NCBI RefSeq assembly: GCF_028748185.1
Contig: NZ_CP118164.1
Span: 3,621,814-3,685,813 of the forward strand
Direction: 5' to 3'
DNA length: 64,000 nucleotides
Source: Bremerella sp. P1
GTDB lineage: Bacteria; Planctomycetota; Planctomycetia; Pirellulales; Pirellulaceae
In this document: piece after piece, positions 25,326 through 61,371 of the stretch
How positions within the stretch are numbered: the first letter of the stretch is position 1
Layout of the letters: each line of letters begins with the position of its first letter
Position numbers and translations under genes: made by a program
The notes under the pieces: model-generated
Seen by the model: only the letters and a program-made list of their open reading frames with translations
Told to the model about the DNA's origin: nothing
Database searches by the model: none

Positions 25326-25372
25326 AGTGCCCCAGTTTGGTCAACCCATTTTCACCAGATTGGAGGTACAAG

Positions 25373-35236: not shown

Positions 35237-35254
35237 TGTGCTTCCTTGTTCTTG

Positions 35255-35988: not shown

Positions 35989-35992
<4 letters not shown>
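35255..35992 (-). CDS. DUF45/YgjP-type zinc metallopeptidase
   Basis: 245-aa member of the M48-like YgjP/SprT-type group. It has zinc motif VIVHELCHLQEHNHGPRF (HELCH at 206-210, further ligand His about 217) and the conserved RMKNRWGSC upstream. Members are frequently encoded immediately after hsdR in type I restriction loci. Its start overlaps the hsdR stop by 4 nt, so it is translationally coupled. Role in restriction is not established; turnover of the R subunit is one possibility (inference). Confidence 0.85.
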
Positions 35993-39258
<3,266 letters not shown>

Positions 39259-39261
39259 TCG

Positions 39262-40492
39262 TCACCCTTTCACCATCTCGGCGTCCACGTTGACACGGAC
39301 TTTGCCGGTGAGAAGTTGCTGCATCAGTCCTTTCTTTTGCTGTTTCAATGAGTCAAGGCGTCTTCCAAGTGCTGCGTTTTCTCTTTCGAATGAGTCAAAC
39401 ACATCAGCAATTCGCTTTTGTTCCACCAACGTCGGTGGCATCTCGATCTTTTCATTGAGAAACCACGGTAGATTGAAGGTCATCTTTTCGATGGTCACAC
39501 CGTAAGCTGATAGTAGCAGCAGCCGATAGAACGAAAGTGTCTGCGAGACGTAGTTCAAGAAAGGCATGTGCAGCTTGTCGGGGTCTTTCGCAACGAAAGT
39601 CGAGTACGAGCCTGAAACGTGCTTTCCATGACACTCTGGCGGAGTGACAGTGATCGCTCCATGCACCGCCTGCATTCGAGCAATCACGAAATCACCAGTT
39701 TCAGTCTTCATCATTACTTTCGTCTTGATGTCATGACCAAGCTTGGTTTCCCGGTCGAACATGCCCCCCGAACGCCTGCGTATGCTCAACAGGTGGTACT
39801 CGGCGTTGTCGTCCCATTCCACCATCCGCTTCACTTCTTTGAGAAGATCGCCAAGCCGTACCTGCTTCCACGGCTTACCTTCAAACTCAGCAAACCGCAC
39901 TTTGCCGGTGAGAAGCTGCTGCATGAGGGCTTGTTTGCGTTTCTGCTTGACGAGGATCAGCTTCTCGGTCAATTCAATTGCCCGATCCCACGTCGAAAGA
40001 ATGGCGGCAATCTTCTGCTGTTCTGGAAGGGGAGGAACTGGAATTCGAGCCTTGACGAAATCTTTGAGATTAAGATTGTTTCGCCCATCGCCCGTTGAAA
40101 CTGCCAGTGAATAGCTGATAAACGGATGGCTATTAAAGTACCAACAGAGATATTCAGGTAGAAGAATGGCCGGGTCAACTCTCGTGTTTAGCGTTGCGAA
40201 TCCGAGGCATCCGTCGAGTTCTTGATCGACGATGGCAGACACACCCACATCACCAGTATGAACCGTGACAATATCCCCGGCTTGGAGTTTTCGTGTCGGA
40301 TACTGGTCGGCAAAGTCGTCTCGAAGAAATATCAGGTCCGGCTTATTGATGCGGTTCTCTGAAATGTTCGAGTTGCGAATTAGAGGAGTACCGCTTTCCG
40401 AGTAGTTGGTTGTCATCGTTGTAACCAAGCCAATCGAAACCTTGGCGGCTTTCCCCAAGACCATTTCTCTCCAGTCGGCTGGAAGTGTATGC

Positions 40493-40500
<8 letters not shown>
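39262..40500 (-). CDS. hsdS: type I restriction system specificity subunit S
   Basis: 412-aa DNA-recognition subunit with two target-recognition domains. Each is followed by a conserved coiled-coil spacer: PLPEQQKIAAILSTWDRAIELTEK in the middle and PTLVEQKRIADVFDSFE at the end. Both halves finish with near-identical KGLMQQLLTGKVR / QALMQQLLTGKVRF units, the duplication typical of HsdS. The recognition sequence cannot be predicted. It overlaps hsdM by 8 nt and is 3 nt from hsdR. Confidence 0.94.
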
Positions 40501-42019
<1,519 letters not shown>

Positions 42020-42120
42020 CGATCTTCCTGTTCAGTGACGCAGCCGATTGCTTGACCATTTAGTACCACTACTCTACAGTAAAGCTTTCGGTTCGGCAAT
42101 CGACTGGCGAGGCAACTGCG

Positions 42121-42438
42121 ATGCGGTTCGGCGAACGAGTCCGTGAACTCAGAAAGAAACGGGGACTCACTCAGCAAAAACTGGCTGAGCGTCTCGATGT
42201 CAGCCTTTCGTACATCTCGAAAGTCGAGAACGAACGACTTAACGTCGGCGACTACCCGAGTGAGAAGTTCGTGAATCGATTGGCCGAGGCACTTGATGCG
42301 GACGAAGATGAACTGTTGCTGTTAACTGACCGAGTACCGGAGGCCATTCGGCGAAGGATTCAGGAACAGCCGGATGTATTTCGCAGACTAGCTGCGATGA
42401 GTGATGCCGAACTGAAGTCTCTCATCAACGGTGGCTAG
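42121..42438 (+). CDS. XRE-family transcriptional regulator
   Basis: 105-aa protein with an N-terminal helix-turn-helix of the Cro/C1 type (FGERVRELRKKRGLTQQKLAERLDVSLSYISKVEN, residues 3-37) and a helical C-terminal dimerisation tail. It is divergent from hsdM and 66 nt upstream of the reverse transcriptase gene. It could control both the restriction operon and the downstream genes, like controller proteins of other restriction systems (inference). Confidence 0.88.
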   Translation: MRFGERVRELRKKRGLTQQKLAERLDVSLSYISKVENERLNVGDYPSEKFVNRLAEALDADEDELLLLTDRVPEAIRRRIQEQPDVFRRLAAMSDAELKSLINGG

Positions 42439-42504
42439 GCAAGCACGGAAGATAAGAACCTAACGGAGTAGCACAGATGGCGTGATAGGCAACTGGGGCA
42501 ACGC

Positions 42505-45500
42505 ATGGCTAAGAGCAGAGACTACTCCGACATTCAGCCACACATCCAGTTCTTGGCCGATCATGCGGTTCTTGTTCAAGCTTGGAAAAAAACGCACGCC
42601 TATATCCGCTCACACAACTGGTACGCCGACTCACTTGAACTGGATGTTTCCGCAATTCGATTGCGAGAACTGATCGAAGAGTGGTCGTCGGAACTCAATC
42701 CCCAGACCATCGACGAGTTTGCTCCCGAACCAATGCGGTTGGTGACTGCGCCGAAGGCTGCGCCGTGGAGTACCAGTGATGGCTGGAATCCAGAAAACTC
42801 TGATGATCTTCGGTTGCGGCCACTAGCGCACATCGCCATTCAGGATCAGACGTATGCAATGGCAGTCCTGATTTGCCTCGCCGATCTCGTGGAGACTGAG
42901 CAAGGAGACCCCCGCCTACCCCTAAATGTAGAAAACCAGAAGAGTGTCGTGAGTTATGGCCATCGGCTCGTAGCTCGATGGGATGACGACTCCGCACACT
43001 TTCAATGGGGCAATGCAAAGCTCTATCGGCAATACTTCGAGGACTACCAGCAGTTCGTGCGTCGTCCAGAGCGCATTCGCCAAGAGCTATTCGAAGACTC
43101 GGACAAATGGGCCATTGTCCAAATTGACTTGTCACGATTCTATGACCTGATTCCTCGTGACGGTCTCCTAGGAAAACTCAAAGCCCTATGTGACCTAGCA
43201 AGACCTTCACACCAAATTGCACACAAACGATTCTTTGAGACCGTCACGCAACTCTTCGACTGGAGTTGGCATGATAACGATGCAGGTCGTGCGAAAGAAA
43301 TCTGCGGCAACGATGAGGGGGTAGGGCTTCCTCAAGGGTTGGCGGCCAGCGGCTTTTTCGCCAACGCTTACCTCTTGGATTTCGATTCATACATGGTGAG
43401 TCTGTTTGGCAAGCGATTGAAGAAACGCAATTGGCGAGTAATGGACTATTGCCGTTACGTCGATGACATGCGTTTTGTGGTTCGTTTCGATGACGAAACT
43501 CCCGAGGCTTTTCGAGACGAATTCGAAGCGATGATCGAGCGTCAACTGAAGAGACATGCGCCGGGACTGCTGCTCAACAAAAAGAAGACGCAGATCATGT
43601 ACGGTGACTCGCACTCGTCCAACGTGCCGGTCGCCGAAGCAATGCAATCAGTGAATACGAATGTTTCAGGGCCGTTGGATGTCGAGACCGCCAGACACGC
43701 ATTGGAAATGCTGGACGGACTGCTCGCTGTATCTAACAGCCGCAAGAACCAGCCAGCCCCTGAAGGTACTGGCCATGATGAATTGCTCAAACGGGTGTTA
43801 GCTGTGGAGCCAGATGTCAGGAATGACACTCTGGAAAGATTTGTTGCTCACAGGTGGCGCAGAGTCTACCGGACGCTAAGGGTTATGGCTGAAGATGAAA
43901 ACGTCACCGACTGTACAATGAATGTTGGTAGAAAAGTTCTCGATCAACGAGCAAGAACCTTCTCCGTCGAGCTACTTCGAAAATGGATTCTCGATCCCTC
44001 GAACGTTCGCATTCTCAGAGTTTCGCTTGATCTCTTTCCGGTTCCAGACCATTTGGAAATCGTCACCAGTCTATTGCAATCTCATTTGGACAAAGATGAC
44101 GACAGAGACAAGTGCCGCCTCACAGCGCAATACGTCGCTTCCGAGATACTCCGGGCCGGTGCGACTGAGACGGGCTTTGTTCGTGACGACGACGAACTGC
44201 CAAGCGGAACTGACATTGGTGAGTATAGGGAGATGCTTACAAAGTTCGCACGAGGAATTCTTGACAATGCAGATGATTCGCCGTGGTACTTGCGTCAGCA
44301 AGCGCTGCTGTTCCTCGCAGTCATGCAGAAACCCGTCAAAGATTCTCATGAAACGACTAAAGAGAATCGCCACTACGGTTATCTCCACGATTTGCTAGGG
44401 GGCGGGTGGCCGAAAGTCACGGCCAAGCGAAGTGTTTCGGCTGACATTGCCGTGCCTTTGTGCCTTGTTGCTCATCGGATCAGCGGCGGCGCAAAATCGA
44501 TTTCAACAGCATTGGCCAAATGGATTGAGCGCACTCCAAATAGTCGAGTTCAGAGTCAGTTGCGCTACATCGTTGAATTCGATGATCTCTACGCCGCAGC
44601 ATTGTCTAAACTTCCAACCAACGAACGAACGTTCTGGAGAAACCTCGCTTCAGCCACAGGTTATTCCGTAATCTCATCTCGAACTGCATGGACTGCTTTA
44701 GAGAAGGACGAGACGGTTCACCGTCTCGTTGACATCATCACGAGCGATGTTAACCCTTTCCAGCAGGAGACGGCGGCGATTCGACTTCTTAGTGAACTGT
44801 CAATGAAATGGGGAGCGGCCAAGGATCGCAAGAATGCTGGCGAGGGAACACTTACACCTGCCCGTGTGCTGGTTATATGCACATCATGGCAGCGTCTTGC
44901 TGATCCCGGTGACAATCTTGCCGACGTAAAATTTGAAGTGCAGATTTCTCCTGAGCCGGAATTAGTTGATGAGCGGTTTGCGGTTCCCTCGTGGTGCCGT
45001 TCCCCAGACCGCTGGAAGTACGAAGTTGGGCAAGTTCTCCGGGCAGCGGTCATCGGAAAGACCGATTACACGCAACCATTTCTCTATCGGCCCGTGGTGC
45101 CGGGAGTCACCAAGTATCGAGGAGTATCCACTGGTTGGTTCAAGCGAAAGCATGGCCTCTTTAATGATCGTCAAGGGCTTGGGCATCGGCTGATGCCGGT
45201 ATCGCCATGGCTTGCCGAACTACTTGGCAGATTGCTGGAGTGGCCCGGAAGCAGGCAGCGACGTGAATTGGTAAAGCTCCCATCCAACTACAGTCCAGCC
45301 GGACTGAGGCGTGCAGTGACAGATCGGCTGAGTGTCTTGGATGGCCTTTACTGCCGATTGAGCGGCCTCCCACTTTATCCATTTCCGGTGCCGAGTGTCA
45401 CGGAGAACGGCAAGGCAGGGCATTTGAAAGTTGCGCTCGTTCAGACTGCCCTTCCAACCATGAAACAACTTGAATCCGCTACCGATCCTACCCTAAGTGA

Positions 45501-46272
45501 TCCAGCGACACGGCGGAAACACCGCAGGCATCTGTCAGCAATGTTGCGATTGTTCATGAAGATGACGGAGGTTCGGGAAGGCTACAAAAATGAACGGGAG
45601 CCAATTGACATCGTTCTTCTCCCAGAGCTTTCAGTCCACCCTGAAGACATCTTCCTTCTTGAGCGATTCGCTGATTCACTCAAGTGCATGGTATTTTGCG
45701 GCCTTGTCTTCCACCCAAAGCCTGAGAACGAAGATGAGTTGATTAACTCTGGACTGTGGATTCTTCCAATCAAAACAAGCGATGGACGGTCAATTCGCTT
45801 CCTTGAACAAGGGAAGTACCACATGACCGCTAATGAGAAGAAAGTGGGGATCGCTCCATTTAGGCCATGTCAATGGCTGGTCGAGTACCGTAGCACCACC
45901 TCGAATCCTTTTCGACTTAGCTCAGCAATCTGCTACGACGCAACCGACCTGCGCCTCGCTGCCGATCTCAAGGAACACACGGATGCCTTTATCGTGTCCG
46001 CCTTGAACAAGGACATCGGAACGTTTGACGCCATGGTGACGGCTCTGCACTACCACATGTATCAACATGTGCTTCTCGTGAACTCAGCGGAATTCGGAGG
46101 CAGTACGGCGCAGGCTCCCTACAAAGACCATTTCCGAAAGGTAATTATGCACCACCATGGTGCAGATCAAGCAACCGTCAGCGTCTTTACAATCGACTTG
46201 AAACGGTTTCGATCTGGCTCCATTAAGGCCAAACCCGAGATCAAGTACCCGCCTGCTGGCTTAGGTCGATAA
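42505..46272 (+). CDS. reverse transcriptase-nitrilase fusion (DRT1/UG1-like defence protein)
   Basis: 1255-aa protein. The reverse transcriptase occupies about residues 60-400: motif A VQIDLSRFYD (D208), motif B GLPQGLAASGFFAN (274-287), motif C CRYVDDMRF (YVDD at 318-321). A long, mostly helical, uncharacterised middle (400-970) follows. The C-terminal domain (about 973-1250) is nitrilase-like with the Glu in LLPELSVHPED (about 1041), a Lys in EQGKYHM (about 1101) and the Cys in SSAICYDATD (about 1141), so the Glu-Lys-Cys triad seems intact. This matches unknown-group 1 RTs (DRT type 1), an antiphage family. There is no adjacent retron ncRNA signature. Confidence 0.9.
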   Translation: MAKSRDYSDIQPHIQFLADHAVLVQAWKKTHAYIRSHNWYADSLELDVSAIRLRELIEEWSSELNPQTIDEFAPEPMRLVTAPKAAPWSTSDGWNPENSDDLRLRPLAHIAIQDQTYAMAVLICLADLVETEQGDPRLPLNVENQKSVVSYGHRLVARWDDDSAHFQWGNAKLYRQYFEDYQQFVRRPERIRQELFEDSDKWAIVQIDLSRFYDLIPRDGLLGKLKALCDLARPSHQIAHKRFFETVTQLFDWSWHDNDAGRAKEICGNDEGVGLPQGLAASGFFANAYLLDFDSYMVSLFGKRLKKRNWRVMDYCRYVDDMRFVVRFDDETPEAFRDEFEAMIERQLKRHAPGLLLNKKKTQIMYGDSHSSNVPVAEAMQSVNTNVSGPLDVETARHALEMLDGLLAVSNSRKNQPAPEGTGHDELLKRVLAVEPDVRNDTLERFVAHRWRRVYRTLRVMAEDENVTDCTMNVGRKVLDQRARTFSVELLRKWILDPSNVRILRVSLDLFPVPDHLEIVTSLLQSHLDKDDDRDKCRLTAQYVASEILRAGATETGFVRDDDELPSGTDIGEYREMLTKFARGILDNADDSPWYLRQQALLFLAVMQKPVKDSHETTKENRHYGYLHDLLGGGWPKVTAKRSVSADIAVPLCLVAHRISGGAKSISTALAKWIERTPNSRVQSQLRYIVEFDDLYAAALSKLPTNERTFWRNLASATGYSVISSRTAWTALEKDETVHRLVDIITSDVNPFQQETAAIRLLSELSMKWGAAKDRKNAGEGTLTPARVLVICTSWQRLADPGDNLADVKFEVQISPEPELVDERFAVPSWCRSPDRWKYEVGQVLRAAVIGKTDYTQPFLYRPVVPGVTKYRGVSTGWFKRKHGLFNDRQGLGHRLMPVSPWLAELLGRLLEWPGSRQRRELVKLPSNYSPAGLRRAVTDRLSVLDGLYCRLSGLPLYPFPVPSVTENGKAGHLKVALVQTALPTMKQLESATDPTLSDPATRRKHRRHLSAMLRLFMKMTEVREGYKNEREPIDIVLLPELSVHPEDIFLLERFADSLKCMVFCGLVFHPKPENEDELINSGLWILPIKTSDGRSIRFLEQGKYHMTANEKKVGIAPFRPCQWLVEYRSTTSNPFRLSSAICYDATDLRLAADLKEHTDAFIVSALNKDIGTFDAMVTALHYHMYQHVLLVNSAEFGGSTAQAPYKDHFRKVIMHHHGADQATVSVFTIDLKRFRSGSIKAKPEIKYPPAGLGR

Positions 46273-47852: not shown

Positions 47853-48368
47853 TCACTCGGTGTCGAGTGACTCAACAAGTCCCTTGAATACTTCCTTGGG
47901 ATAGCCGTATTTCCGACCATCAGGGCCGACAAGTGCTGACATCGGTGTTTCATTCAGGCGATACCCAATCTCGCTAGGGGCCATGTCGTCTTCCAGCATG
48001 CATTTGGCCGCATGGATGTGATCGTTCATTGATCCCGTCACCGAACGATTCAATGCCTTGGCGAAAGAGACCGTCTCGCTCGATGGGGCAATGAACTTCC
48101 GGTAGATGAACTGCTGCCCGTCGTCTGCCGTGAATTCCCGAATCGTGTCCAGCGCTCGGTCGATGAAGATGCCGTCGTTGGTGATTCCTGCTCCATACAT
48201 CACGCACGAATACAACGATGCTGTGTTCGTCAGGATGATGTACTGCGTTCGATCAGCGGTGAAAAGATGGCATGACCAGTCCGCATACGGGTTCTCATCC
48301 AGCGGCATCTCGGTCAGTTTGCCAGCCTTGATCTTCGTGTTGAGCTTTTGTGAAAGTCGCAGGATCAT
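47853..48368 (-). CDS. DUF6933-like protein
   Basis: 171-aa soluble protein beginning MILRLSQKLNTKIK with DRTQYIILTNTASLYSCVMYG, a pattern found in the DUF6933 group of unknown function. Start at 48368 forms an ATGA overlap with the TspO gene. The ORF is open far upstream, but that part is antisense to nothing meaningful and overlaps TspO. Convergent with the two-helix membrane gene, 9 nt apart. Confidence 0.7.
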   Translation of the reverse strand: MILRLSQKLNTKIKAGKLTEMPLDENPYADWSCHLFTADRTQYIILTNTASLYSCVMYGAGITNDGIFIDRALDTIREFTADDGQQFIYRKFIAPSSETVSFAKALNRSVTGSMNDHIHAAKCMLEDDMAPSEIGYRLNETPMSALVGPDGRKYGYPKEVFKGLVESLDTE

Positions 48369-48766
48369 CGGCCCCAATTCCAGAATGTGATGGACAATTG
48401 AAGCACCGTGGCAATCGACACCCAAGAAAAGTACGGCAGTTGTGCAACAGCGACCCACTTGTAGTGTCGCCAGATCGCCACCGCCATCCAGATGATCGTG
48501 ACCCAAACGATCACGATGTCGAGTGCCGCCAGCGGCAGGTTTCGCAGCCCAAACTGGATCGGTGTGAAAATCAGGTTGGCCACGAGGTTGATGCCAAATG
48601 GCAGGGCGACCATCCAAGGCACTTTCTTCCTGATGGCCTGCACGAACACGAAGCCGAAGGTGACGAGAATGATGGGGTAGATGATCTGCCACATCAGCCC
48701 GATGGTGGACGGCTCCGGTGTCCACGACGGCTTCTCAAGGCTGTTGTACCATTCCTTCCAAGTCAT
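48365..48766 (-). CDS. tspO: TspO/MBR family protein (N-terminally short)
   Basis: 133-aa membrane protein with WYNSLEKPSWTPEPSTIGLMWQIIYPII and GINLVANLIFTPIQFGLRNLPLAALDIVIVW, matching TspO helices 1b-4. Typical TspO has an extra N-terminal helix before WY; it is missing here, so the gene is short or starts elsewhere. TspO binds tetrapyrroles and acts in photo-oxidative or stress response. Its start overlaps the upstream gene by 4 nt. Confidence 0.82.
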   Translation of the reverse strand: MTWKEWYNSLEKPSWTPEPSTIGLMWQIIYPIILVTFGFVFVQAIRKKVPWMVALPFGINLVANLIFTPIQFGLRNLPLAALDIVIVWVTIIWMAVAIWRHYKWVAVAQLPYFSWVSIATVLQLSITFWNWGR

Positions 48767-49056
48767 CCCTCTGCCTCCTCCATGATTTGAAGCGTGTTGA
48801 TCGCAGTCACCCTGACGAGGCGGTCTTCCATGCCTGAGATTAACGCACGGACGGCTGGCATTGCACGTTTGGCGTCTGAATAGCGCTCTTGGAGAAGCAC
48901 GAGGACTGTCAACTTCAAGTCGATGTCCCGTTGCTGAAGCGCCCAGATCAGCCCGTCGATAACAACATCGCCGAAGTCCTTGAGGTTGGCGAAAGCTTCA
49001 TCCTCTTGGGCCATGAAGGACGGCGACACTCGCTTCATCTTCAAGGCGGCGGCCAC
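48763..49056 (-). CDS. HEAT-repeat-like small protein
   Basis: 97 aa (GTG start; an ATG at 49014 would give 83 aa). Helical, with VIDGLIWALQQRDIDLKLTVLVLLQERY and AVRALISGMEDRLVRVTAINTLQ reading like two HEAT repeats, so possibly a fragment of a larger HEAT protein. First gene of a coupled three-gene minus-strand set (this, TspO, DUF6933-like). Confidence 0.55.
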   Translation of the reverse strand: MAAALKMKRVSPSFMAQEDEAFANLKDFGDVVIDGLIWALQQRDIDLKLTVLVLLQERYSDAKRAMPAVRALISGMEDRLVRVTAINTLQIMEEAEG

Positions 49057-49127
49057 TGCGTCGAAGGCCGTGGACTACCTGCTGAGCCACGTCCGCCAGC
49101 TGGAAGAGCAACCAGCTTGCGACCAAG

Positions 49128-50911: not shown

Positions 50912-51844
50912 GTGTCTGATTCTCGTACAGAAGGCGGCAAAAACCCGAGTGATAATGTTTTCGACAACATCCCTGTCGGCAAAGACGAGGCCCGTCTGTT
51001 CGGGGAGTACCTCGGCTCTTCCGATCTCTCGGCCAACTCCCAGCGAGCCATCGTCAACGACCTGCGAAAATTCGCACGGTGGTTTGTGAACGCCAACCGG
51101 GAAACACTGACGTTCGCCCGAGTTACCACCAGAGACATCACCGACTTCCGAGACTCGCTTCGTGACCAAGGGCAAGCTGTCGCCACAGTGAACCGTGCCC
51201 TCGTCAGTGTCCGTCGTTACTGCCGTTGGCTGTGCGAAGTTGGGCACCTGCAAATGAATCCAGCGAAGGGCGTCAAAGAACTCAGGATGCAGGAGCTTGC
51301 TCCCAAGGGACTTGACCGAGCGCAGGTCCGGCGATTGTTTCGAGAAGTTGAACTTCGGAACGACGTGCGAGCGAATGCCGTCTTCAGTTTCATCATCTAC
51401 ACCGGCTGCCGAGTCGGTGATCTCGTGGACCTGACACTCGATGATCTCTTGTTGTCCGAGCGATCCGGCACGGCGGTCTTCCGTTCTGGCAAGGGGAACA
51501 AACAACGCTCGGTTCCGGTTCCACTGGCCGCACGGAAAGCACTCTCGGCCTATTTGGAAACACGGCCACCCATTGAAGGTGATGAAGTGTTCGTCGGCGA
51601 GCGTGGACCGCTCAGCGACAAGGGAGTGCGATGCCTGTGTGACAAGTACAGCGTCATCTGCGGTTTCAAGATTCACCCGCATCTGCTTCGTCACACGATG
51701 GCGCACAAGTTCCTTGAAGACAATCCCGGCGATCTGGTCTCGCTCGCACAAATCCTCGGTCACGAGAACCTCAACACCACGAAGCGGTACGTCGCCCGAA
51801 CCGAGCAGGAGTTGGCCGACGCCGCTGAGCGGATGCAGTTCTGA
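50912..51844 (+). CDS. tyrosine recombinase, XerC/D-like
   Basis: 310-aa protein with the full catalytic set: Arg in IIYTGCRVGDLVDL, Lys in RSGKGNKQRS, HPHLLRHTMAHKF (His-x-x-Arg), ILGHENLNTT and Tyr in KRYVARTEQ. The N-terminal SAM-like core-binding domain is present. It is closer to XerC/XerD than to the two recombinases near attL, so the island has two recombinase types. GTG start. Confidence 0.93.
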   Translation: MSDSRTEGGKNPSDNVFDNIPVGKDEARLFGEYLGSSDLSANSQRAIVNDLRKFARWFVNANRETLTFARVTTRDITDFRDSLRDQGQAVATVNRALVSVRRYCRWLCEVGHLQMNPAKGVKELRMQELAPKGLDRAQVRRLFREVELRNDVRANAVFSFIIYTGCRVGDLVDLTLDDLLLSERSGTAVFRSGKGNKQRSVPVPLAARKALSAYLETRPPIEGDEVFVGERGPLSDKGVRCLCDKYSVICGFKIHPHLLRHTMAHKFLEDNPGDLVSLAQILGHENLNTTKRYVARTEQELADAAERMQF

Positions 51845-53649: not shown

Positions 53650-54022
53650 TTCATCGGCGACAAGCCAAGTCGTGTTGAAGAACTAAAAACCAAACAATTC
53701 TCAACCATTTCTTCACATCGATGTCAGGCAGGCCGGGGTTGCAGATGACTTAACCCTGTTTCTTTTTTGTTGGTCCCCGCTCGTTTCGTTTTCCCCAATG
53801 GGCTGTGAATCAATATGGGAAAAGCGAGATTGAAAAATCACCGTCGCCTCGAAATCTGTTGGCGGCAGGGTCGTCCAAGTGTTGCTGTTGCAAAAGTTGT
53901 AATCGTGGCGTGAAAAGTCGGTGTGCTGGTGGCCTGTTCGTGGTTCAGAAGGAACGGGACTCCCCCCAAAAACCGCCGTCGATACGTTGAGCCATCGTGG
54001 GTGCGCAACGTGAACGTTGAGA

Positions 54023-55480
54023 TCACGCTGCCAACATGTCGAAGCACCCAACAAATCGTGTCACATAGTCGGGATGAAGCCGCTCTGGACGGATTGGGAT
54101 GACTTCCACGGGGCGAATCACGTCTTGGTCCGGTGTTCTAGTCAGTGATTCGGACCAACTGAGGAGTGATGGGGAAATGGGGTTTCCATAGAGGATGCTC
54201 CCCCCTCCTGTAAAGAAAGTCGCTTCTTCTGCTTCCAACTGCTTTTCACCAGCTTCGGCCAGTTTCACCATCAACTCAGCCGAAAAACGCCATTTGGCAG
54301 CCTTGCCTTTGACGAACGTGCCATCGTCGGCGTACCAACCGGGCCGGTAGCTTTCGTCTTCCCACTCAATCAGGCCCAGCGAAGACAGGTAGTTCCGAAT
54401 CACGGCGAAGCGTTTGTGGTCCCAGCCTCGCTCAACATCACCAGCTTCGTACAAAGCCTTCCACAATTCAGCCCACCGCTTCGTTGGCATGGCACCATTG
54501 GCAGGCATGTTGTTCGTCAACCATTCACCCAGCATCAGGGCAATGGCCATGTCCCCAACCGTGACCACCGACCGGCCACTCGTCTTCAACGGATGAGCGG
54601 AGATCAGACTTGATGCCACCACCTGAAAACGACCGTCTTTCTTCAGCCCAGCAAGGGTTTCAGCGTCAAAGTGTTTGCCAGAAACCGACCCAGACGACGG
54701 ATCGACCTGAATCAGTGAAGGCTTGGTCTCAGGTGTAGGCAGATGAAACAGGATGTCACCTGCTGCAATGCGAGTCGTGTTCTTTAATTCGTCGAACCGG
54801 GAGACGAGACCTCTTGGTACCTTGGCCAGCATCCCCGACTTGTAGCTCAGCACTTCAAACTTTCGCCATCCCCACTCCACCACTGGCATGGTTCCTTTGA
54901 TCTCCACAAACTCTACGTCAAAATCGGCAGCCAGATCATTGAGCCACGGAGTCAGTACTTGCAAAAGGGCTTTGTTCACATGCTCCGTGTCGTGGTCCTC
55001 TTTTTCGAGCAGAAAATAGCCGTGGCCTCCCCTGCCATTCGTCGATGGCTCGGAGTAGAGGTTGGGAAAGTAGTTGTCACGGAGGAATTGAAGATACTGA
55101 CGTGCGCCCTCGGGCGAGCCTTTCTTCTTGCAGTCCACGTCGATGTTTGTGAGTGTCAGTAGTTTCTTGGACTCGCCAGCCCCGGCGAAATACATCTGTC
55201 GTAGGGCGTGACAGTGGGGAGTGACATTGTTCCAGCCCCAGCGGAACGGAAGAAAGGATGGCTCTCCACGCTCCAGAACGGCGAAGTGCTTCAGCACACG
55301 TTCATTCTTGTTGCAATGCTTTGGGCGAGGCTCACCGGCGAAGTGTTCTCCAAGATCAATCTCGGACACATGCCGCTTGAACCACGCCAACGGTGAGGTA
55401 GTCCGCTCGTTCGTCGGCGTTGCATTTCTTTCAGCGATCCTTCGGCGGAACTCGTCCGCATGTTCTCTTTCAACAACCAT
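54023..55480 (-). CDS. putative primase/replication protein
   Basis: 485 aa (ATG at 55480; a TTG at 55495 is possible). No clear family. The N-terminal half contains LTNIDVDCKKKGSPEGARQYL (DxD) and SEPSTNGRGGHGYFLLEKED, spaced like the DxD and SxH motifs of archaeo-eukaryotic primases (AEP), with DFDVEFVEI further on as a possible third acidic motif. The C-terminal half is helical, with a possible winged helix. It would supply priming for an island with autonomous replication. This is a motif-based guess. Confidence 0.45.
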   Translation of the reverse strand: MVVEREHADEFRRRIAERNATPTNERTTSPLAWFKRHVSEIDLGEHFAGEPRPKHCNKNERVLKHFAVLERGEPSFLPFRWGWNNVTPHCHALRQMYFAGAGESKKLLTLTNIDVDCKKKGSPEGARQYLQFLRDNYFPNLYSEPSTNGRGGHGYFLLEKEDHDTEHVNKALLQVLTPWLNDLAADFDVEFVEIKGTMPVVEWGWRKFEVLSYKSGMLAKVPRGLVSRFDELKNTTRIAAGDILFHLPTPETKPSLIQVDPSSGSVSGKHFDAETLAGLKKDGRFQVVASSLISAHPLKTSGRSVVTVGDMAIALMLGEWLTNNMPANGAMPTKRWAELWKALYEAGDVERGWDHKRFAVIRNYLSSLGLIEWEDESYRPGWYADDGTFVKGKAAKWRFSAELMVKLAEAGEKQLEAEEATFFTGGGSILYGNPISPSLLSWSESLTRTPDQDVIRPVEVIPIRPERLHPDYVTRFVGCFDMLAA

Positions 55481-55970
55481 CGTATCGTTCAACAAATAAA
55501 GAACGCCTCAGCAGGTTTTCAGTTGGGAAACGGAAAAGCACCGGGCCGAGGCGTCCAGTTGTGTTGATAGATGTCTTCGGTGCTTTCTTGGCGTCCGTTC
55601 CCCGCACCTTTATGTAGTGTGGATGATCTCAAAAATTCAGGAATAGGTCAAAAATCTGTTCTGCCACCTTGATAGACAACTTTGAAGCTCAAAGTTGGGA
55701 GATCGCAACTGAAAAATGTCATACTTTTTGGCCCGAAAGGTCAAAACACAACGGGCCACTCGTAGATTTTAGCCATTCTTTAATTTATCGCAGAACACTC
55801 GAACTCGCTGATGAAAGTCATGGTACCGTGCGATCAACGTCACAGTTGGCCAATTGATCGAAGCAAAGTCTGATGCCCCAGCAATCTTCACCTACTGAAC
55901 TATGGGCTGGCTCTGTCTGAGAAACCGGTATTTCAGACGGCTGCATTTTTTCGATTACAAAAGTTGGAAC
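55481..55970. other. non-coding stretch left of the truncated gene copy
   Basis: 490 nt. It contains the long inverted repeat AAAGCACCG ... CGGTGCTTT (about 55536-55586); no protein frame is supported. Confidence 0.45.
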
Positions 55971-56130
55971 CTAAGACCAAGCACATTGTCTTGTGTCCGT
56001 CTCTTCTGCATCCAGAATCAGCATTGCCAAGGTCTCATCAGGACCAAAACCATTTGCGACATCCATCTTCAATGGTAGTTTTTCCGCACAGTACAGTCGT
56101 TGGACTCGGGCTATGAGGTCTGACTTGTTG
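55971..56130 (-). pseudogene. C-terminal remnant homologous to the gene at 60005-60403
   Basis: The minus-strand frame reads ...NGFGPDETLAMLILDAEET before a stop, matching HGLGPEESVAMMILDAEET at the end of the 132-aa gene at 60005. Upstream the frame shows a stop after about 55 codons and no start region. The two copies differ at about a third of bases by eye, so the duplication is not recent. It lies 40 nt downstream of the third GYF gene. Confidence 0.65.
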
Positions 56131-56169
56131 CCTTATTGTTGTAAGCACCCACTTCGTGCGTGGTCGGGG

Positions 56170-57405
56170 TCACTCGACGCAGGCCCCCCAAACAATCACA
56201 TTCCACGAACTGGGAGGGTAAGAGCCGGGAACGAGTTCGTTGGTCTTTATCATCGGAGTAAAGTGAAGTCCTGTTTTCAACACACCAAGAACATGAATAG
56301 TCTCCCCGTTGTATGACTGTACCCACACATGACCCCGATCACCCGGGGCGTCCCGGACCAAAGTTGGCTCCCCGAACCCGTCAACCCAATCTTGGTAGCT
56401 GCATCCAAAGTCAATGTCATAGTACTTCCGGGTCACACCATCGTCGATTCCGAAGTTTACCTTAGTGCCATGCTGTATTGTGCGTGGATCAGTGTATTGT
56501 TTTTTTATCGAACCACCCATTTGCTCAAATTGAGCCATGAATGTGTCTGCTTTGGGGAGTGGTAATCGCCGTGAAAAGGCTTCTATGGTTTCTTGTCCTC
56601 GTTCTCGCTTGTCCACAACCGAGCAGTTATCCAACATGATGATGTAGGCATCTTTGTCGGGAAAAGGATGTCGTCCGATGAACGTGCCAGATACTGTAAG
56701 CTGTGAATGGCTACTCGTTACATTTTTTAATGTATCCTCTTCCGTCTGGTCGAAGTGGCAAACTGCTGATACATCCTTGTACTCAGTGCTGAGTCCTATA
56801 GAAATCTTGCCCTTTATGCTCCCTCCATCCAAGTCTCTGGCCTTTCCTCTATTGGTCCAGAGTCCTGTGACGCTGATCTTCCGGCCCTGAAAATCTGATG
56901 AATCGATATTGGCGGGTAGGTTCTGGAAAAAATCTGCTGAGTTGGAAGAAATGCTGCTTTTTGAAGTGGCTTCGAAACCACTGCCAAAATGATCGTTGCG
57001 ATTTTCGTTTGCTTCAGCTACGACATCGGAATTGCTCTCGATTGTCGCAGAAGGTCCGTCGGACGGCGGTATACTCAAAAGTCCGATAAAAAGGACCATG
57101 ACTGTGGCAAACGCCACACCCACCAGCAACCGCCTCGGCGTGAATACTTGGACCCTCCCAGCAGTTTCTAGTTCGTCGATCTTCCGTTTAGACGGAAGCT
57201 TGGGGGGTGGCGAACTGGGACGTGATGCCACCTGATCCGAAGAAAATAAGTTCTTCACTTTCTCAGCAATTATGAAATCGCCATCGCCTCCCTTACGAAC
57301 GAGATCATCAGAATTGAGTTTTCCTGCCAGCGCAAGCTCCCGAAGCTGGTGGCCAGAGATAGGGCCGCTCAACCTGTTTTCACGACGAATGAACCATTGT
57401 GCCAT
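56170..57405 (-). CDS. GYF_2-domain membrane protein C
   Basis: 411-aa protein. The N-terminal GYF_2 domain is MAQWFIRRENRLSGPISGHQLRELALAGKLNSDDLVRKGGDGDF (1-45). One membrane helix (about residues 90-110) and a large C-terminal soluble domain follow, with no recognised family (contains GFGEPTLVRDAPGDRGHVWVQ). GYF_2 domains bind Pro-rich peptides or partner proteins. The start at 57405 lies 1 nt after the stop of protein B. Confidence 0.7.
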   Translation of the reverse strand: MAQWFIRRENRLSGPISGHQLRELALAGKLNSDDLVRKGGDGDFIIAEKVKNLFSSDQVASRPSSPPPKLPSKRKIDELETAGRVQVFTPRRLLVGVAFATVMVLFIGLLSIPPSDGPSATIESNSDVVAEANENRNDHFGSGFEATSKSSISSNSADFFQNLPANIDSSDFQGRKISVTGLWTNRGKARDLDGGSIKGKISIGLSTEYKDVSAVCHFDQTEEDTLKNVTSSHSQLTVSGTFIGRHPFPDKDAYIIMLDNCSVVDKRERGQETIEAFSRRLPLPKADTFMAQFEQMGGSIKKQYTDPRTIQHGTKVNFGIDDGVTRKYYDIDFGCSYQDWVDGFGEPTLVRDAPGDRGHVWVQSYNGETIHVLGVLKTGLHFTPMIKTNELVPGSYPPSSWNVIVWGACVE

Positions 57406-57406
57406 G

Positions 57407-58567
57407 TTACCTTGGCCTCCTATTGGCAAGTCTCGCCACCTGCTCTTCGGTCAAAGCCACATCATATACAGCTAATTCATCAATCACACCGGAAAATGCG
57501 TAGTAGGTGCTGCCAGTTGTGTATGTGCCCAATGTTATTGGACCATTTGTTGTGTCCAGTGTACGGGAGACATTTGCAACAACTTTCCCATCAAACCAGT
57601 ACAGTACAGTAGTGCCATCGAAGGTCAGGCAATGATGATGCCACTCACGATCTACTACGGCGTCAGTGGAGTGCTGGCCACCCCATCCGTACATACACCA
57701 TCTGCCCTTAACGTGGCAGATACCCCACGCTCTTTTGCCGAATTCATCCTTGCCACATGAGATGACATGTGAGTTTCTTGCTTCAGATTCACCGCCATTT
57801 TTGATCCATGCCGATAGTGTGCGTGGAGCCTTTCCCGCAGGAAGCTTACAAGGCACTTGAAGTAATCGCCTATCCTTGAACGCTGCTGCCCTTCCGTCGA
57901 TACCGTCCACAAGAACGATCCCTTTGGCGGCAAGTTGACTTCGTGGCACATAGTTATCATCGAACGTCAACGAGAATACCGTGTCGGGCGTTACCGATCC
58001 GCCAACATTTGTGGGAATCTCTGGGGAGTTCACATTGGCTGTTTCGCTCGTCTTACTCGGATTTTTTTCAGGCGAGTCTGGTTGCTGTGGTTTGGGAGTG
58101 GTTGCTGCTGCTGCTGCGTCAACCCTCTCGTCCATTGCTTGCAATTCTCGTCTGAGCAAAGCATCTTGACGATCCAATGATTCTCGGGTCTGTTGAACAA
58201 GGTCTTCTCCGGTAATCTTATCTCGGAGGTCTTGAATGGCACCCGAGACCCTTGCCCAAGCGGTTGGCTCATCTCGAAACTGAGCCACGATTCCGAAGCC
58301 AATTATCATTAGCACCAACGTCCACAGTGCTACCCCCCCCCAGCCTTTCATATTGAGCGAACGTGAGGTTTTAGGGGTATTGCCATCAGGTAAAGGTGGC
58401 GGTGGATTGCTTCCAATGACGCTGGCTGGAATGGACTCCAAGTCACCATCTCGCCACACAAGGTCATCAGGCTCTATAACCCCAGTTTCTACCAATTTCT
58501 CAAGCTGTGAAGCTGAGAAAGGTCCATAGCCCTTTCCGTCATCAGCTAAAAACCATTCGTTTGTCAT
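57407..58567 (-). CDS. GYF_2-domain membrane protein B with LamG-like domain
   Basis: 386-aa protein. GYF_2 domain at 1-45 (MTNEWFLADDGKGYGPFSASQLEKLVETG), Pro-rich spacer, membrane helix about 77-97 (GVALWTLVLMIIGFGIVAQF), coiled-coil linker, then a concanavalin/LamG-type domain (about 190-380: RTLSAWIKNGG, WHHHCLTFDGTTVLYWFDGKVV, GVIDELAVYDVALTEEQV). LamG domains bind carbohydrates or proteins outside the cell, so the domain is probably exposed across the membrane. Confidence 0.85.
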   Translation of the reverse strand: MTNEWFLADDGKGYGPFSASQLEKLVETGVIEPDDLVWRDGDLESIPASVIGSNPPPPLPDGNTPKTSRSLNMKGWGGVALWTLVLMIIGFGIVAQFRDEPTAWARVSGAIQDLRDKITGEDLVQQTRESLDRQDALLRRELQAMDERVDAAAAATTPKPQQPDSPEKNPSKTSETANVNSPEIPTNVGGSVTPDTVFSLTFDDNYVPRSQLAAKGIVLVDGIDGRAAAFKDRRLLQVPCKLPAGKAPRTLSAWIKNGGESEARNSHVISCGKDEFGKRAWGICHVKGRWCMYGWGGQHSTDAVVDREWHHHCLTFDGTTVLYWFDGKVVANVSRTLDTTNGPITLGTYTTGSTYYAFSGVIDELAVYDVALTEEQVARLANRRPR

Positions 58568-58584
58568 GAATCGGCTCTATCAAC

Positions 58585-59964
58585 TTATTGATCGATGATT
58601 CTGTGTTTGGCTCTGATATGTGTAAAGTTCAATTTTGACGACCACCAATGATACTCAGATTGCTTCACAAGACCGATTCCTTCGGCGTACCAATTAACCC
58701 ACTTTGCAACTACTGGCATTCTATCATCGCCTAAGATTTCTTTTTCAATCATGACACAGCGTCTTTCATTGTGGCGTACACAGCGTCGGTAATGGAAACG
58801 AGTTATCACCTCCTCACCAACCACATCGAGATTAATCCATTCCCACTGATCTCCGGGCAAGGCACCGATACGGATGATCGGGGAGGTGAAGCCTTCACCA
58901 TGATATTGGAGCATAGTTTTTGGCTCACCTTTACTAAGTTGAATATTGAACGTCACGTCTGATTCACCAATCTGCGTGCGTTCCTTGTAACCTGTGATCG
59001 ATGTCTGTTCCCATAATTGTGGTGTCAAGGAAGCTTTAAGCATATCAGGGTTAATGGAGCGGAAACGGAAAGTGCCAGCCTTGGCAAAATCTTCCGTGAG
59101 AGGGACTGCTGCTATATCTGGACTTTCTTCTACGTCCGCAAAGGGCAGGTTTTCATAGGCTGCATCGCCCAACTCTTCGAGTGTTCCGATTTCGCCAGAT
59201 TCCGCTGAAGCTGAGGAAGACTTTGTTTTTGTAGCGATTGTTGACCCCGAACGAATTGTCGCAATCAACTCCCGTCCAACATCACTCGAAACCATAGGGC
59301 TAACGGGCGAGACATAGGAGTTCATTTTCTCGTAAACATCTTTAGCTTCAGCTTCACGACCATCTTCGGCGAGAAAGTCGAATGTCCTTCCATAGACACT
59401 GGATCGTTTCTCTGTGGGAATCCAATCCGATAATTCCTGTACGATGGAAAGGTAGAATGGGCCTGCCTCACTTCTATCTCCCTGATCCCATAGCGACTCC
59501 GCTTGTGCGATCTTGACAGCAGCAGCTTCACGTTGGAAAACTGAGGTTACTATGCTCATGACAAGCAGGGCAGCAACGGCACCTCCACCAATGAGTAGAG
59601 TTTTCCTTGAAAGTCTCTCAGTGCCGACGAGCTTGAAAATGAGCAAAATGAAACCGACCGGAGGAAAGATCAGACAAAACAAACCAATGACGAAAAGGTT
59701 CTGCCACCACCTTTGACCCTCCTTAAGCGACACACCTGTTTTTCGTGCCTCAGGTGGTTGAGTCGGAGTTGAAACTTTTGTTTCACACAGATGAGGAAAC
59801 AGCCATTTTACGGTCCCTGCCCGACGCCAATCTTTCATGTCGGTATGCCAAACGAGATCGTCGGGGGAAAGCTGGCCAGTTGTGGCCAGTTCATTCAGTT
59901 GCGACGACGTGATTGGACCGTGCGTTTCGCCGTTTTGTGAATAGTGCCAAAGTTTCTCGCTCAT
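58585..59964 (-). CDS. GYF_2-domain membrane protein A
   Basis: 459-aa protein. GYF_2 domain at 1-55 (LWHYSQNGETHGPITSSQLNELATTGQ), then two or three membrane helices around 88-142 (FVIGLFCLIFPPVGFILLIF; LIGGGAVAALLVMSIVTSVF), a coiled region and a C-terminal domain with no recognised family. First of the three tandem GYF genes on this strand; 17 nt separate it from protein B. Codon use differs from the left-arm genes (lower GC), indicating transfer. Confidence 0.75.
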   Translation of the reverse strand: MSEKLWHYSQNGETHGPITSSQLNELATTGQLSPDDLVWHTDMKDWRRAGTVKWLFPHLCETKVSTPTQPPEARKTGVSLKEGQRWWQNLFVIGLFCLIFPPVGFILLIFKLVGTERLSRKTLLIGGGAVAALLVMSIVTSVFQREAAAVKIAQAESLWDQGDRSEAGPFYLSIVQELSDWIPTEKRSSVYGRTFDFLAEDGREAEAKDVYEKMNSYVSPVSPMVSSDVGRELIATIRSGSTIATKTKSSSASAESGEIGTLEELGDAAYENLPFADVEESPDIAAVPLTEDFAKAGTFRFRSINPDMLKASLTPQLWEQTSITGYKERTQIGESDVTFNIQLSKGEPKTMLQYHGEGFTSPIIRIGALPGDQWEWINLDVVGEEVITRFHYRRCVRHNERRCVMIEKEILGDDRMPVVAKWVNWYAEGIGLVKQSEYHWWSSKLNFTHIRAKHRIIDQ

Positions 59965-60004
59965 GGCTTGGCATTATCCCCTGACTTTTCACGAACTGCA
60001 ACAT

Positions 60005-60403
60005 TCACTCCCCCTTCGTCTCCTCTGCATCGAGAATCATCATCGCCACGGACTCTTCCGGCCCAAGACCATGATCGGGTGAGTTCACCACAACCCGCAC
60101 GGCCTTCTCCAGCCATTTGCGAAGGTCTTCGAGCTTCGGCTTTTCCCCGTGTAGTTCGATATACAGCGGAGCCACAAATCGATGGACCGGGCGATCTTGA
60201 AGACTCTCCATCATCGCATCGTGGTAAACCCAAGACGCCTCGGTGACGTTTGCGAAGATTCGGGCCTCGGATTCGTTGGCCGTCCAATCCGAGCCGTCCC
60301 AAAACACGGGATTCTTGTAGGCGTCTCCTTTGGCGACGATGAAGCGTGGGAACTTGTCACATCCTCGCTTGACGACGGTGATTGCTGGTATGTTCTCATT
60401 CAT
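60005..60403 (-). CDS. backbone hypothetical protein, 132 aa
   Basis: Not recognised. The C-terminus is GLGPEESVAMMILDAEETKGE, which recurs in truncated form at 55971. ATG at 60403 chosen since GGGAG sits 7 nt before it. It overlaps the upstream 82-aa gene by 8 nt and is followed by the GYF genes. Confidence 0.6.
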   Translation of the reverse strand: MNENIPAITVVKRGCDKFPRFIVAKGDAYKNPVFWDGSDWTANESEARIFANVTEASWVYHDAMMESLQDRPVHRFVAPLYIELHGEKPKLEDLRKWLEKAVRVVVNSPDHGLGPEESVAMMILDAEETKGE

Positions 60404-60644
60404 TGTCATCTCCCTCTGGATGCTCGGGCACAAACTTGCCTCCGTTCAAGACAGCAGAATTACGGATCACCAGCGGCACGTCGTACTTGAGTCGTCTCGG
60501 GTTGCGAATGGCCAGATTGACGATCCCTTGGCCTGTGACTCGCACTGTCATAAACAGAACAGGCACTTTCTTCGCCGTGGTTGGGCAGTCAATCACGCCG
60601 GTATCGAGCGACAGAACTTCACACTCGGCAACATCCAATTTCAT
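60396..60644 (-). CDS. backbone hypothetical protein, 82 aa
   Basis: Not recognised. Beta-rich: VLFMTVRVTGQGIVNLAIRN and PLVIRNSAVLNGG. ATG at 60644 with GAGAGGAGTTTCCAA before it. It has the 13-bp element 49 nt upstream, placing it in the backbone set on the minus strand. Confidence 0.6.
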   Translation of the reverse strand: MKLDVAECEVLSLDTGVIDCPTTAKKVPVLFMTVRVTGQGIVNLAIRNPRRLKYDVPLVIRNSAVLNGGKFVPEHPEGDDNE

Positions 60645-60707: not shown

Positions 60708-61175
60708 TTACCGAGGTGGACTGTTCCCACACCGATTACACGGAGCGAACTCACCTTCAATGGGAGCGTTACAGTTCCCGCACAGCCAATGGCCTTGGCC
60801 ACAGTTCCAACAATGGAAATCCAGATCGACCATCTCAGCGTGGCAGTATGGGCAGTACCATCGCTCTGCTGGTCCATCTTCTGGCGATGCAAGAATTTCA
60901 GCGTCCGAGCGGAAGGGCCACGGGCACGAATGGTCAAACCACGGGTCGAGTCCGTTGGCCGTGAACTCCCGATACTCTTCGGTGTGACCAAACAGGAGTC
61001 GATGCCCGAGCCACTGAGCGGTGTTGAATAATACGGCGACGATGAAGGCGATGGAGGCCAAGAATCCGAGGCTGATGGCCCCGGTCACGACGGCGGGAAT
61101 GCCGATGGGCAATGAGATTAAGAACCCCATGATCCAGAATCGGGCAATGACTTCGGCGGCGCTGCTGTTTCGCAT
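60708..61175 (-). CDS. membrane protein with C-terminal double zinc ribbon
   Basis: 155 aa: two membrane helices (about 15-35 and 38-60), then WYCPYCHAEMVDLDFHCWNCGQGHWLCGNCNAPIEGEFAPCNRCG with four CxxC knuckles, i.e. two treble-clef/zinc-ribbon units. First minus-strand gene inside attR, with a 13-bp element 37 nt upstream. Function unknown. Confidence 0.7.
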   Translation of the reverse strand: MRNSSAAEVIARFWIMGFLISLPIGIPAVVTGAISLGFLASIAFIVAVLFNTAQWLGHRLLFGHTEEYREFTANGLDPWFDHSCPWPFRSDAEILASPEDGPAERWYCPYCHAEMVDLDFHCWNCGQGHWLCGNCNAPIEGEFAPCNRCGNSPPR

Positions 61176-61354: not shown

Positions 61355-61371
61355 CCCGCCGCCTCCACTTT
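61355..61371. repeat. right attachment repeat (attR)
   Basis: CCCGCCGCCTCCACTTT, identical to 25147-25163; no tmRNA body precedes it. Confidence 0.9.

What the first reader, a model, noticed from the sequence alone, without database searches (positions are those of the whole stretch)
56170..59964. Three tandem GYF_2 membrane proteins, one with a LamG domain
Each has an N-terminal GYF_2 domain, then membrane helix/helices and a distinct C-terminal domain. Junctions are 17 nt and 1 nt, so they are co-expressed and probably form a membrane complex. I know of no described system with this three-part make-up; as cargo of a defence-rich island it could be a surface-exclusion or membrane-linked defence module.
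Basis: inference. Interest (0 to 1): 0.6.

Follow-up and report, generated by a model that had tools for sequence, protein, structure and literature searches.

The report
Swappable membrane gene trio on defence island
Three neighbouring genes on a mobile DNA island make membrane proteins that share one small binding domain but carry different other domains; they look like one version of a set of surface-sensing genes seen on mobile DNA in related bacteria, and their job is untested.

Summary
On the minus strand lie A (59964-58585), B (58567-57407) and C (57405-56170). Each has an N-terminal GYF_2 domain above Pfam's cut-off and one or two membrane helices; B ends in a LamG domain. Junctions are 17 and 1 nt. 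The trio is accessory: it lies near the right end of a ~36 kb island at the tmRNA gene (17-bp exact end repeats) that also carries SIR2-HerA, type I restriction and DRT1a genes. A sibling island in a same-genus genome has a HEAT-repeat gene in its place, and the trio's third-position GC (0.45-0.51) is below that of five other island genes (0.62-0.66). A's C-terminal domain was found in one other genome, C's in none searched. New here: two small genes beside the trio (60005-60403; Zn-ribbon membrane gene 60711-61175) recur in other genomes, 5 of 16 loci with GYF_2 genes nearby and 5 of 16 with kinase-LamG receptor genes. Polyproline tracts follow GYF_2 domains far more often than in controls, suggesting that GYF-polyproline contacts assemble these proteins. 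I read the trio as an envelope-sensing complex of a mobile, modular system. A defence role is plausible but untested; surface exclusion has no support.

The parts
58585..59964 (-). Gene A, 459 aa: GYF_2 (aa 6-53), two hydrophobic helices (aa 91-109, 124-142), helical region, C-terminal domain (about aa 241-457) shared with one other genome found (G019)
57407..58567 (-). Gene B, 386 aa: GYF_2 (aa 5-44), PPPPLP (aa 55-60), one membrane helix (aa 79-97), LamG/Laminin_G_3 (aa 247-378)
56170..57405 (-). Gene C, 411 aa, ATG start: GYF_2 (aa 4-53), PPPKLP (aa 66-71), one membrane helix (aa 97-115), OB-like region (about aa 159-275, inferred), C-terminal tail
   Evidence: (low confidence)
57416..57421 (-). 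AGGAGG ribosome-binding site of C inside the 3' end of B
60005..60403 (-). 132-aa conserved partner gene (g60005); g60005-like ORFs lie beside the Zn-ribbon gene in 10 other genomes
60396..60644 (-). 82-aa gene, 85% identical in G119 and 66% in G121, between the two conserved partner genes
60711..61175 (-). 155-aa membrane protein with a C-terminal zinc ribbon (Pfam zinc-ribbon hits below cut-off), conserved partner gene
55998..56054 (-). Remnant of the 3' end of a second g60005 copy downstream of C (68% over 19 aa)
55701..60386 (.). Exchanged segment with the trio: nucleotide similarity to the sibling island of G119 stops at both sides; in G119 this place holds a HEAT-repeat gene and a 53%-identical g60005
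53908..55477 (.). Neighbouring exchanged segment: 490-aa ORF (54023-55495) here, a 638-aa ORF in G119; only short weak matches between the two proteins
24803..25160 (+). tmRNA gene (ssrA), integration site of the island
25147..25163 (+). 17-bp tmRNA 3'-end sequence, left end of the island
61355..61371 (+). Exact 17-bp copy of the tmRNA 3' end, right end of the island
25337..27109 (+). Integrase-like gene (no Pfam hit itself), homologous to the integrase-like gene at 27714; 90% identical in the G119 island
27714..28724 (+). Phage_integrase match below Pfam's cut-off (23.0 against 27.1)
50912..51844 (+). Tyrosine integrase, 93% identical in the G119 island
47853..48725 (-). DUF6933 gene; a relative lies in the GYF_2 neighbourhood of G043
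48766..49074 (-). Short HEAT-like ORF related to the HEAT-repeat genes seen beside the Zn-ribbon gene elsewhere
32132..46272 (.). Defence cargo: HerA and SIR2, YgjP-like, HsdR/S/M, Drt1a reverse transcriptase

Best explanation
A, B and C are co-translated subunits of an envelope-spanning sensing complex, carried as exchangeable cargo in a variable segment of an ssrA-integrated defence-island family. They are a local variant of a modular gene neighbourhood that recurs in this bacterial family, often with integrases: GYF_2-TM proteins, a LamG receptor, a g60005-like small protein, a Zn-ribbon membrane protein and often a HEAT-repeat protein. In G123, G640, G653, G681 and G086 the LamG sits on a Ser/Thr kinase; here it sits on a GYF_2-TM protein (B). 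Proposed working: the C-terminal domains face outside the cytoplasm, LamG binding a glycan or surface ligand. The cytoplasmic GYF_2 domains bind polyproline tracts (PPPPLP in B, PPPKLP in C) in the juxtamembrane linkers of their neighbours, tying the receptors together and passing the signal to the partner genes. Shown: architecture, operon spacing, island position, segment exchange, recurrence of the neighbourhood, enrichment of polyproline after GYF_2. Inferred: GYF-polyproline binding, complex formation, topology, ligand, and any protective role.
For: Domains and junctions. Island ends. Sibling island in G119, where nine backbone proteins are 83-95% identical and another gene sits in the trio's place; its defence segment holds type III RM and DrmD- and ThsA-like genes. 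Trio third-position GC 0.45-0.51 against 0.62-0.66 for five island genes. The Zn-ribbon gene was matched in 16 of 241 family genomes. A GYF_2 gene lies near it in 5 of 16 loci; excluding the two query sources (G000, G043) and G579 (no Zn ORF recovered), 3 of 13, with 0.12 expected and P = 2.5e-4. Kinase-LamG genes lie near it in 5 of 16 loci; of the 8 strong matches to the LamG of G123 (the query itself included) in 15 of these genomes plus G019, 5 are in those loci. PPP follows GYF_2 within 60 aa in 35 of 83 proteins, against 10 of 148 proline-rich windows (P = 3e-10) and 0 of 51 juxtamembrane segments of proteins without GYF_2; PPPLP 8 of 83 against 1 of 148.
Against: No binding, expression or phenotype data. 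A has no PPP tract (TPTQPPE only), so it would have to act through its GYF domain alone. PPG, the core I recall for eukaryotic GYF ligands, is not enriched (3 of 83, shuffle mean 7). The exact trio was found nowhere else. 11 of 16 Zn-gene loci have no GYF_2 gene, and HEAT-like ORFs are matched in more of them (8 of 16, some short or overlapping) than GYF_2 genes are. C's OB-like region matches neither the G653 nor the G043 protein by sequence; the A-domain link to the G653 277-aa protein is weak (E 0.003 for a single pair, hhalign probability 2%). The structure models are poor (pLDDT 34 and 41). Positive residues in A's inter-helix loop leave its topology ambiguous. The neighbourhood windows were 4.9-18 kb long and not uniform, and the G086 window was drawn knowing that a GYF_2 gene lay there (6.4 kb away). 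The polyproline counts were not corrected for shared ancestry.
Confidence: 0.48

Rival explanations
1. The trio is an anti-phage or anti-plasmid module in its own right: an envelope complex that senses an invader at the surface and acts through the membrane.
For: It sits in a variable segment of an island whose defence segment holds different defence genes in two relatives. GYF-pair proteins occur in described conflict systems (PMC7159879, passages). In G526 and G078, GYF_2-TM proteins sit beside MotA/ExbB, with trypsin, vWA or cyclase-like domains.
Against: PADLOC has no hit to any of the three. No effector domain (nuclease, pore, nucleotide synthase) was recognised in A-C. Co-location is not function.
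Confidence: 0.27
2. The trio is ordinary accessory envelope signalling or adhesion cargo (glycan sensing, surface attachment) that merely travels on the island, with no conflict role.
For: GYF_2 proteins are nearly universal in the order (96 of 98 genomes, 1-11 matches each), and most lie away from the Zn-ribbon loci. LamG and ECF/kinase pairs suggest environmental sensing. B's LamG has a weak hit to the fimbrial family TafC (27 bits against a cut-off of 410).
Against: The combination recurs with the same small partner genes and, in several loci, near integrase-like genes.
Confidence: 0.25
3. Surface or entry exclusion: the trio keeps out a second copy of the same element.
For: It is membrane-bound, carried by a mobile element and exchanged between relatives.
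Against: No relaxase, type IV secretion or pilus gene was recognised above cut-off in the island proteins scanned, apart from a TrwB-like hit that belongs to the HerA of the SIR2 pair.
Confidence: 0.05
4. The three genes are paralogous relics assembled by tandem duplication and decay, without joint function.
For: A remnant of a second g60005 3' end lies just downstream. C-terminal domains of A and C are near-orphan, and all three genes are AT-rich at third positions.
Against: All three frames are intact, closely spaced, with a ribosome site for C. Beyond the GYF_2 domain and the stretch up to the membrane they share no detected similarity, so simple duplication does not explain them.
Confidence: 0.08

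Closest known systems
GAP1-N2-type GTPase-centric conflict systems with GYF-pair proteins in planctomycetes (Kaur et al. 2020, PMC7159879, passages read)
   Same: GYF domains joined to membrane-rich or peptidase parts inside gene neighbourhoods proposed as conflict systems.
   Different: No GTPase, GAP1-N2 or FNIII-repeat hit among the island proteins scanned here; each trio protein has a single GYF_2 and carries LamG or orphan domains, not trypsin.
ECF sigma plus Ser/Thr kinase-TM-LamG receptors of the same bacterial family
   Same: A single-helix membrane protein with a LamG domain; in the first five, near a Zn-ribbon gene and in four of them near a g60005-like gene; in G019, near the only other A-type domain found.
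   Different: In B a GYF_2 domain stands where the kinase is, and no ECF gene was noticed beside the trio. B's LamG is not shown to be specially close to theirs.
GltJ of Myxococcus gliding machinery (NCBIfam NF033761)
   Same: A GYF-like stretch in a protein recalled to sit in the inner membrane.
   Different: Scores 14.2 (A) and 22.2 (B) bits against a cut-off of 450; only the GYF stretch is alike.
tmRNA-integrated genomic islands (Islander, PMC4383910, listing and start of abstract seen)
   Same: Tyrosine integrase, restored tmRNA 3' end, end repeat at the far side.
   Different: Several exchanged segments between the two relatives compared, one with defence genes and one with the trio.

Membership tests
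GYF_2 domain proteins (PF14237) | Score above Pfam gathering cut-off (25.8 bits) | tested here: met
   59.6, 40.5, 32.6 bits
GYF domains as polyproline binders | Binds proline-rich peptides | not testable with these tools
   Only indirect: PPP and PPPLP enriched after GYF_2; binding is known for eukaryotic GYF domains (recalled)
Laminin_G_3 / ConA-like (PF13385) | Score above cut-off (27.6) | tested here: met
   B 59.0 bits, aa 247-378
GAP1-N2 GTPase-centric system | GAP1-N2, GTPase and FNIII components in the neighbourhood | tested here: not met
   No such Pfam hit among the island proteins scanned; not every small ORF was scanned
Known anti-phage system (PADLOC-DB 2.0.0) | Profile match of A, B or C | tested here: not met
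   0 families each
Known anti-phage system (PADLOC-DB 2.0.0) | Protection against phage | not testable with these tools
   needs an assay
Kinase-TM-LamG receptor | N-terminal protein kinase domain | tested here: not met
   B has GYF_2 in that place and no kinase hit
GltJ gliding protein | Equivalog cut-off 450 bits | tested here: not met
   14.2 (A), 22.2 (B), none (C)
Entry or surface exclusion protein | Carried by a conjugative element | tested here: inconclusive
   No conjugation gene recognised in proteins scanned; not every ORF scanned
ssrA genomic island | tmRNA 3' end intact, copy of it at the far end, tyrosine integrase inside | tested here: met
   sibling in G119
OB-fold domain in C | Five-stranded OB fold | tested here: inconclusive
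   Strand order b-b-b-a-b-b in a low-confidence model; no profile or sequence hit

The most novel reading that the evidence does not exclude
A mobile-element receptor system, undescribed in the searches made here, in which GYF_2-polyproline contacts on the cytoplasmic side couple several receptors with different outer domains (LamG, OB-like, A-type). It exists in a kinase/ECF version and a kinase-free GYF version, with g60005-like, Zn-ribbon membrane and HEAT-repeat partners, and protects host or element at the envelope.
Probability: 0.22. Interest if true: 0.75.

Novelty: new variant of a known kind. Interest (0 to 1): 0.5.

Why it matters
GYF_2 domains are nearly universal in this bacterial order (96 of 98 genomes sampled), yet the five text searches made here with GYF terms (listings only, and for only 15 of 633 papers listed) showed no paper on how bacterial GYF_2 membrane proteins work; I recall work on GltJ of Myxococcus that the library did not return. 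The link between GYF_2 and a following polyproline tract gives a simple binding hypothesis testable with peptides. The recurring pair of small genes gives a handle for finding more versions of the neighbourhood and for asking whether it is a defence, signalling or element-maintenance system.

Tried and rejected
Rejected: core chromosomal trio; simple tandem duplication (the detected shared part is only the GYF_2 end); known PADLOC system; GltJ homology; Na/H exchanger next to tmRNA as the ancestral order (in the five relatives fetched, no tmRNA lies in the 8.3-9.8 kb fetched upstream of the exchanger).

Led nowhere: relatives of A's C-terminal domain in genome contigs and viral contigs; relatives of C in genome contigs; A in plasmids gave one GYF-only hit and C in phages none; AlphaFold2 without alignment gave pLDDT 34 and 41, so no fold search was run; OB-like regions of C, G653 and G043 do not find each other by phmmer, nor C the other two by BLASTP; the A-domain against the G653 277-aa protein is marginal. 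G019, the only other holder of the A-domain, gave no match and so was not in that sample. I did not trace the island backbone in all nine genus genomes; only G000 and G119 are shown to carry it. Rows dropped: second matches within one ORF were merged; in the Zn-locus test G000, G043 (query sources) and G579 (no Zn ORF recovered) were left out. The 83 segments came from loci fetched by then, many of them best GYF_2 matches; they include the trio, related proteins, and C-terminal tails of 1-15 residues. The control ORFs came from the longer loci (over 4.5 kb) fetched plus the window, not from exactly the same loci.

Full report
Observation. A is 59964-58585, B 58567-57407 and C 57405-56170, all on the minus strand. 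Pfam gives GYF_2 above cut-off in each and Laminin_G_3 in B. Hydropathy puts the membrane helices after the GYF_2 domain and a linker. The likely start of C is the ATG at 57405, preceded by AGGAGG inside B. The 17-nt and 1-nt junctions are right.

Island. The window holds a tmRNA gene at 24803-25160. Its last bases recur exactly, 17 bp, at 61355-61371. In five same-genus genomes contiguous similarity to the window stops at the tmRNA 3' end. Between the two repeats lie integrase-like genes (25337, 27714, 50912), two methylases, SIR2 and HerA, a YgjP-like gene, HsdR/S/M, a Drt1a reverse transcriptase, a RuvB-like ATPase, an AlpA-like regulator and a 490-aa ORF (54023-55495) with no Pfam hit, which looks primase-like to me (recalled, untested).

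Sibling island. Genome G119 (same genus) carries a related island at its tmRNA. Nine backbone proteins are 83-95% identical, among them the first integrase-like gene (90%), int50912 (93%), RuvB-like (86%), AlpA-like (83%) and the 144-aa gene (93%); the 222-aa gene at 48889, g60005 and the zinc-ribbon gene are less alike (48-56%). Its right end repeat is followed by the sequence that follows the tmRNA in G043 and G123. Three segments are exchanged between the two islands. (1) Window 31478-49127, the defence genes; apart from one 227-bp match, G119 has there a type III restriction pair and DrmD-like and ThsA-like genes. (2) Window 53908-55477, the 490-aa ORF; G119 has a 638-aa ORF with only short weak matches. 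(3) Window 55701-60386, with the trio; G119 has g60005 (53% identical) and a HEAT-repeat gene. The trio's third-position GC is 0.45-0.51 against 0.62-0.66 in five other island genes. A remnant of a second g60005 3' end lies just downstream of C. The trio is thus separate, swappable cargo.

Distribution. Full-length A found matches in 67 of 119 family genomes, nearly all to its GYF_2 end; its C-terminal domain was matched only in G019, at 52% identity. A profile of that domain matched 1 of 392 phylum genomes, the window's own (G019 cannot have been in that sample). The C-terminal part of C matched 1 of 294, also its own, and full-length C found matches in 46 of 119 family genomes, none of those listed reaching beyond residue 168 except its own. 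GYF_2 itself is in 96 of 98 genomes of the order. The exact trio is therefore rare, and the shared domain is common.

Tandem GYF_2 genes. In 17 genomes (the 16 Zn-gene genomes plus G019) 87 distinct GYF_2 ORFs form 10 pairs within 3 kb; 0.19 are expected. Three pairs are the trio; the others are in G043 (2), G123 (3), G653 and G019. The set was chosen, not random, and the G123 pairs and one G043 pair rest on short or below-cut-off matches. Outside this set, G526 has three GYF_2 genes within 4.4 kb around a MotA/ExbB gene, one with trypsin and one with vWA, and G078 a related set with a cyclase-like domain in place of trypsin. [quoted passage not shown] the whole text was not read); I did not find their GTPase part.

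Conserved partners. Upstream of A lie g60005 (132 aa), an 82-aa gene and a 155-aa membrane protein with a zinc ribbon. In same-genus G043 a relative of the zinc-ribbon protein (34% in the alignment) is followed by a GYF_2 protein 26% identical to A outside its C-terminal domain, a PF06439 ConA-like protein and a DUF6933 gene; the window's island also has DUF6933. A two-sequence profile of the zinc-ribbon protein matched 16 of 241 family genomes. I examined all 16 loci (G579 gave no zinc-ribbon ORF). A g60005-like ORF lies beside it in 11 of 16. GYF_2 genes lie nearby in 5 (G000, G043, G640, G653, G086) and kinase-LamG genes in 5 (G123, G640, G681, G653, G086); G640, G653 and G086 have both. 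HEAT-like ORFs are matched in 8 of 16 (G000, G119, G123, G681, G103, G652, G112, G115), two of them the profile's own sources and some short or overlapping other frames; the one of the window lies at 48766-49074, away from the trio. So HEAT genes are at least as frequent there as GYF_2 genes. Without G000, G043 and G579, GYF_2 is near 3 of 13, where 0.12 is expected (P = 2.5e-4). Eight strong matches to the LamG of G123, the query itself included, exist in 15 of these genomes plus G019, and 5 lie in these loci. The kinase-LamG genes of G019, G123, G640, G653 and G086 have an ECF-like gene beside them (Pfam tested only for G640), and a match to the ECF gene of G123 lies beside the one of G681. 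Homologues of the integrase-like gene 25337 are in the G123, G640, G045 and G112 loci. G653 shows the fullest parallel: kinase-LamG, ECF-like, GYF-zinc-ribbon, a 277-aa membrane protein weakly like A's domain (E 0.003 for one pair), GYF-coil-TM with an OB-like end (by eye), a PDZ protein, g60005-like and zinc-ribbon genes.

Polyproline. In 83 GYF_2 proteins from loci fetched, the 60 residues after the last GYF_2 contain PPP in 35; shuffles of the same segments average 14.7, maximum 22. PPPLP occurs in 8; shuffles average 0.29, maximum 3. ORFs without GYF_2 from the longer loci and the window have PPP in 10 of 148 proline-rich 60-mers and in 0 of 51 segments before a membrane helix. The Fisher P values are 3e-10 and 2e-9, and 0.0014 for PPPLP. 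Shared ancestry was not corrected for. B has PPPPLP and C PPPKLP between GYF_2 and membrane; A has only PP. PPG, the core I recall for eukaryotic GYF ligands, is not enriched (3 against a shuffle mean of 7).

Reading. The best-supported account is a membrane complex whose cytoplasmic GYF_2 domains bind neighbours' polyproline linkers and whose outer domains sense or bind surface ligands. It is one version of a mobile, modular system that elsewhere uses a kinase-LamG receptor. Gene content, exchange and association are shown; binding, topology, ligand and purpose are inferred. A protective role on a defence island is plausible, but nothing here tests it. No paper describing this neighbourhood appeared in the listings; the library lacks most subscription journals and bioRxiv preprints.

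Noticed in passing
window 25147-61371; L159 and L151 (G119): Related ssrA islands with a conserved backbone and at least three exchanged segments; the defence segment swaps SIR2-HerA/type I RM/DRT1a for type III RM/DrmD-like/ThsA-like genes.
   Followed up: partly
L112 986-10001; L115 2043-9738: Conserved cluster of a ~990-aa protein, double-GYF protein, MotA/ExbB channel, GYF-TM-trypsin (L112) or GYF-TM-cyclase-like (L115) protein, GYF-vWA (L112) and TM-coil proteins.
   Followed up: partly
L116 4290-6622 and 6852-9137 (G019): ECF-like, kinase-TM-LamG, double-GYF protein and the only other A-type domain found in one locus, with an integrase-like gene (by eye) at 56-1306.
   Followed up: partly
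L036, L038, L077, L079, L100: Proteins with a C-terminal GYF_2 that end in a bare polyproline tail (such as TPPPPPPPAS).
   Followed up: no
window 61372 to L106 about 10327: Relative to G043, the window genome has further DNA between the island's right end and the point where similarity to the G043 post-tmRNA region resumes; it includes the Na/H exchanger, which in G123 lies far from the tmRNA.
   Followed up: partly
L106 1732-2619 (just right of the window): Another GYF-like membrane protein about 6 kb beyond the island's right end, found by a home-made profile but not listed for PF14237.
   Followed up: no
window 35255-35992: YgjP-like metallopeptidase gene between the HsdR and SIR2 genes, overlapping or nearly touching both.
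   Followed up: no
window 47853-49074; L117 7841-8347: DUF6933 genes in both neighbourhoods, about 52% identical; in the window a short HEAT-like ORF (48766-49074) lies beside it.
   Followed up: no
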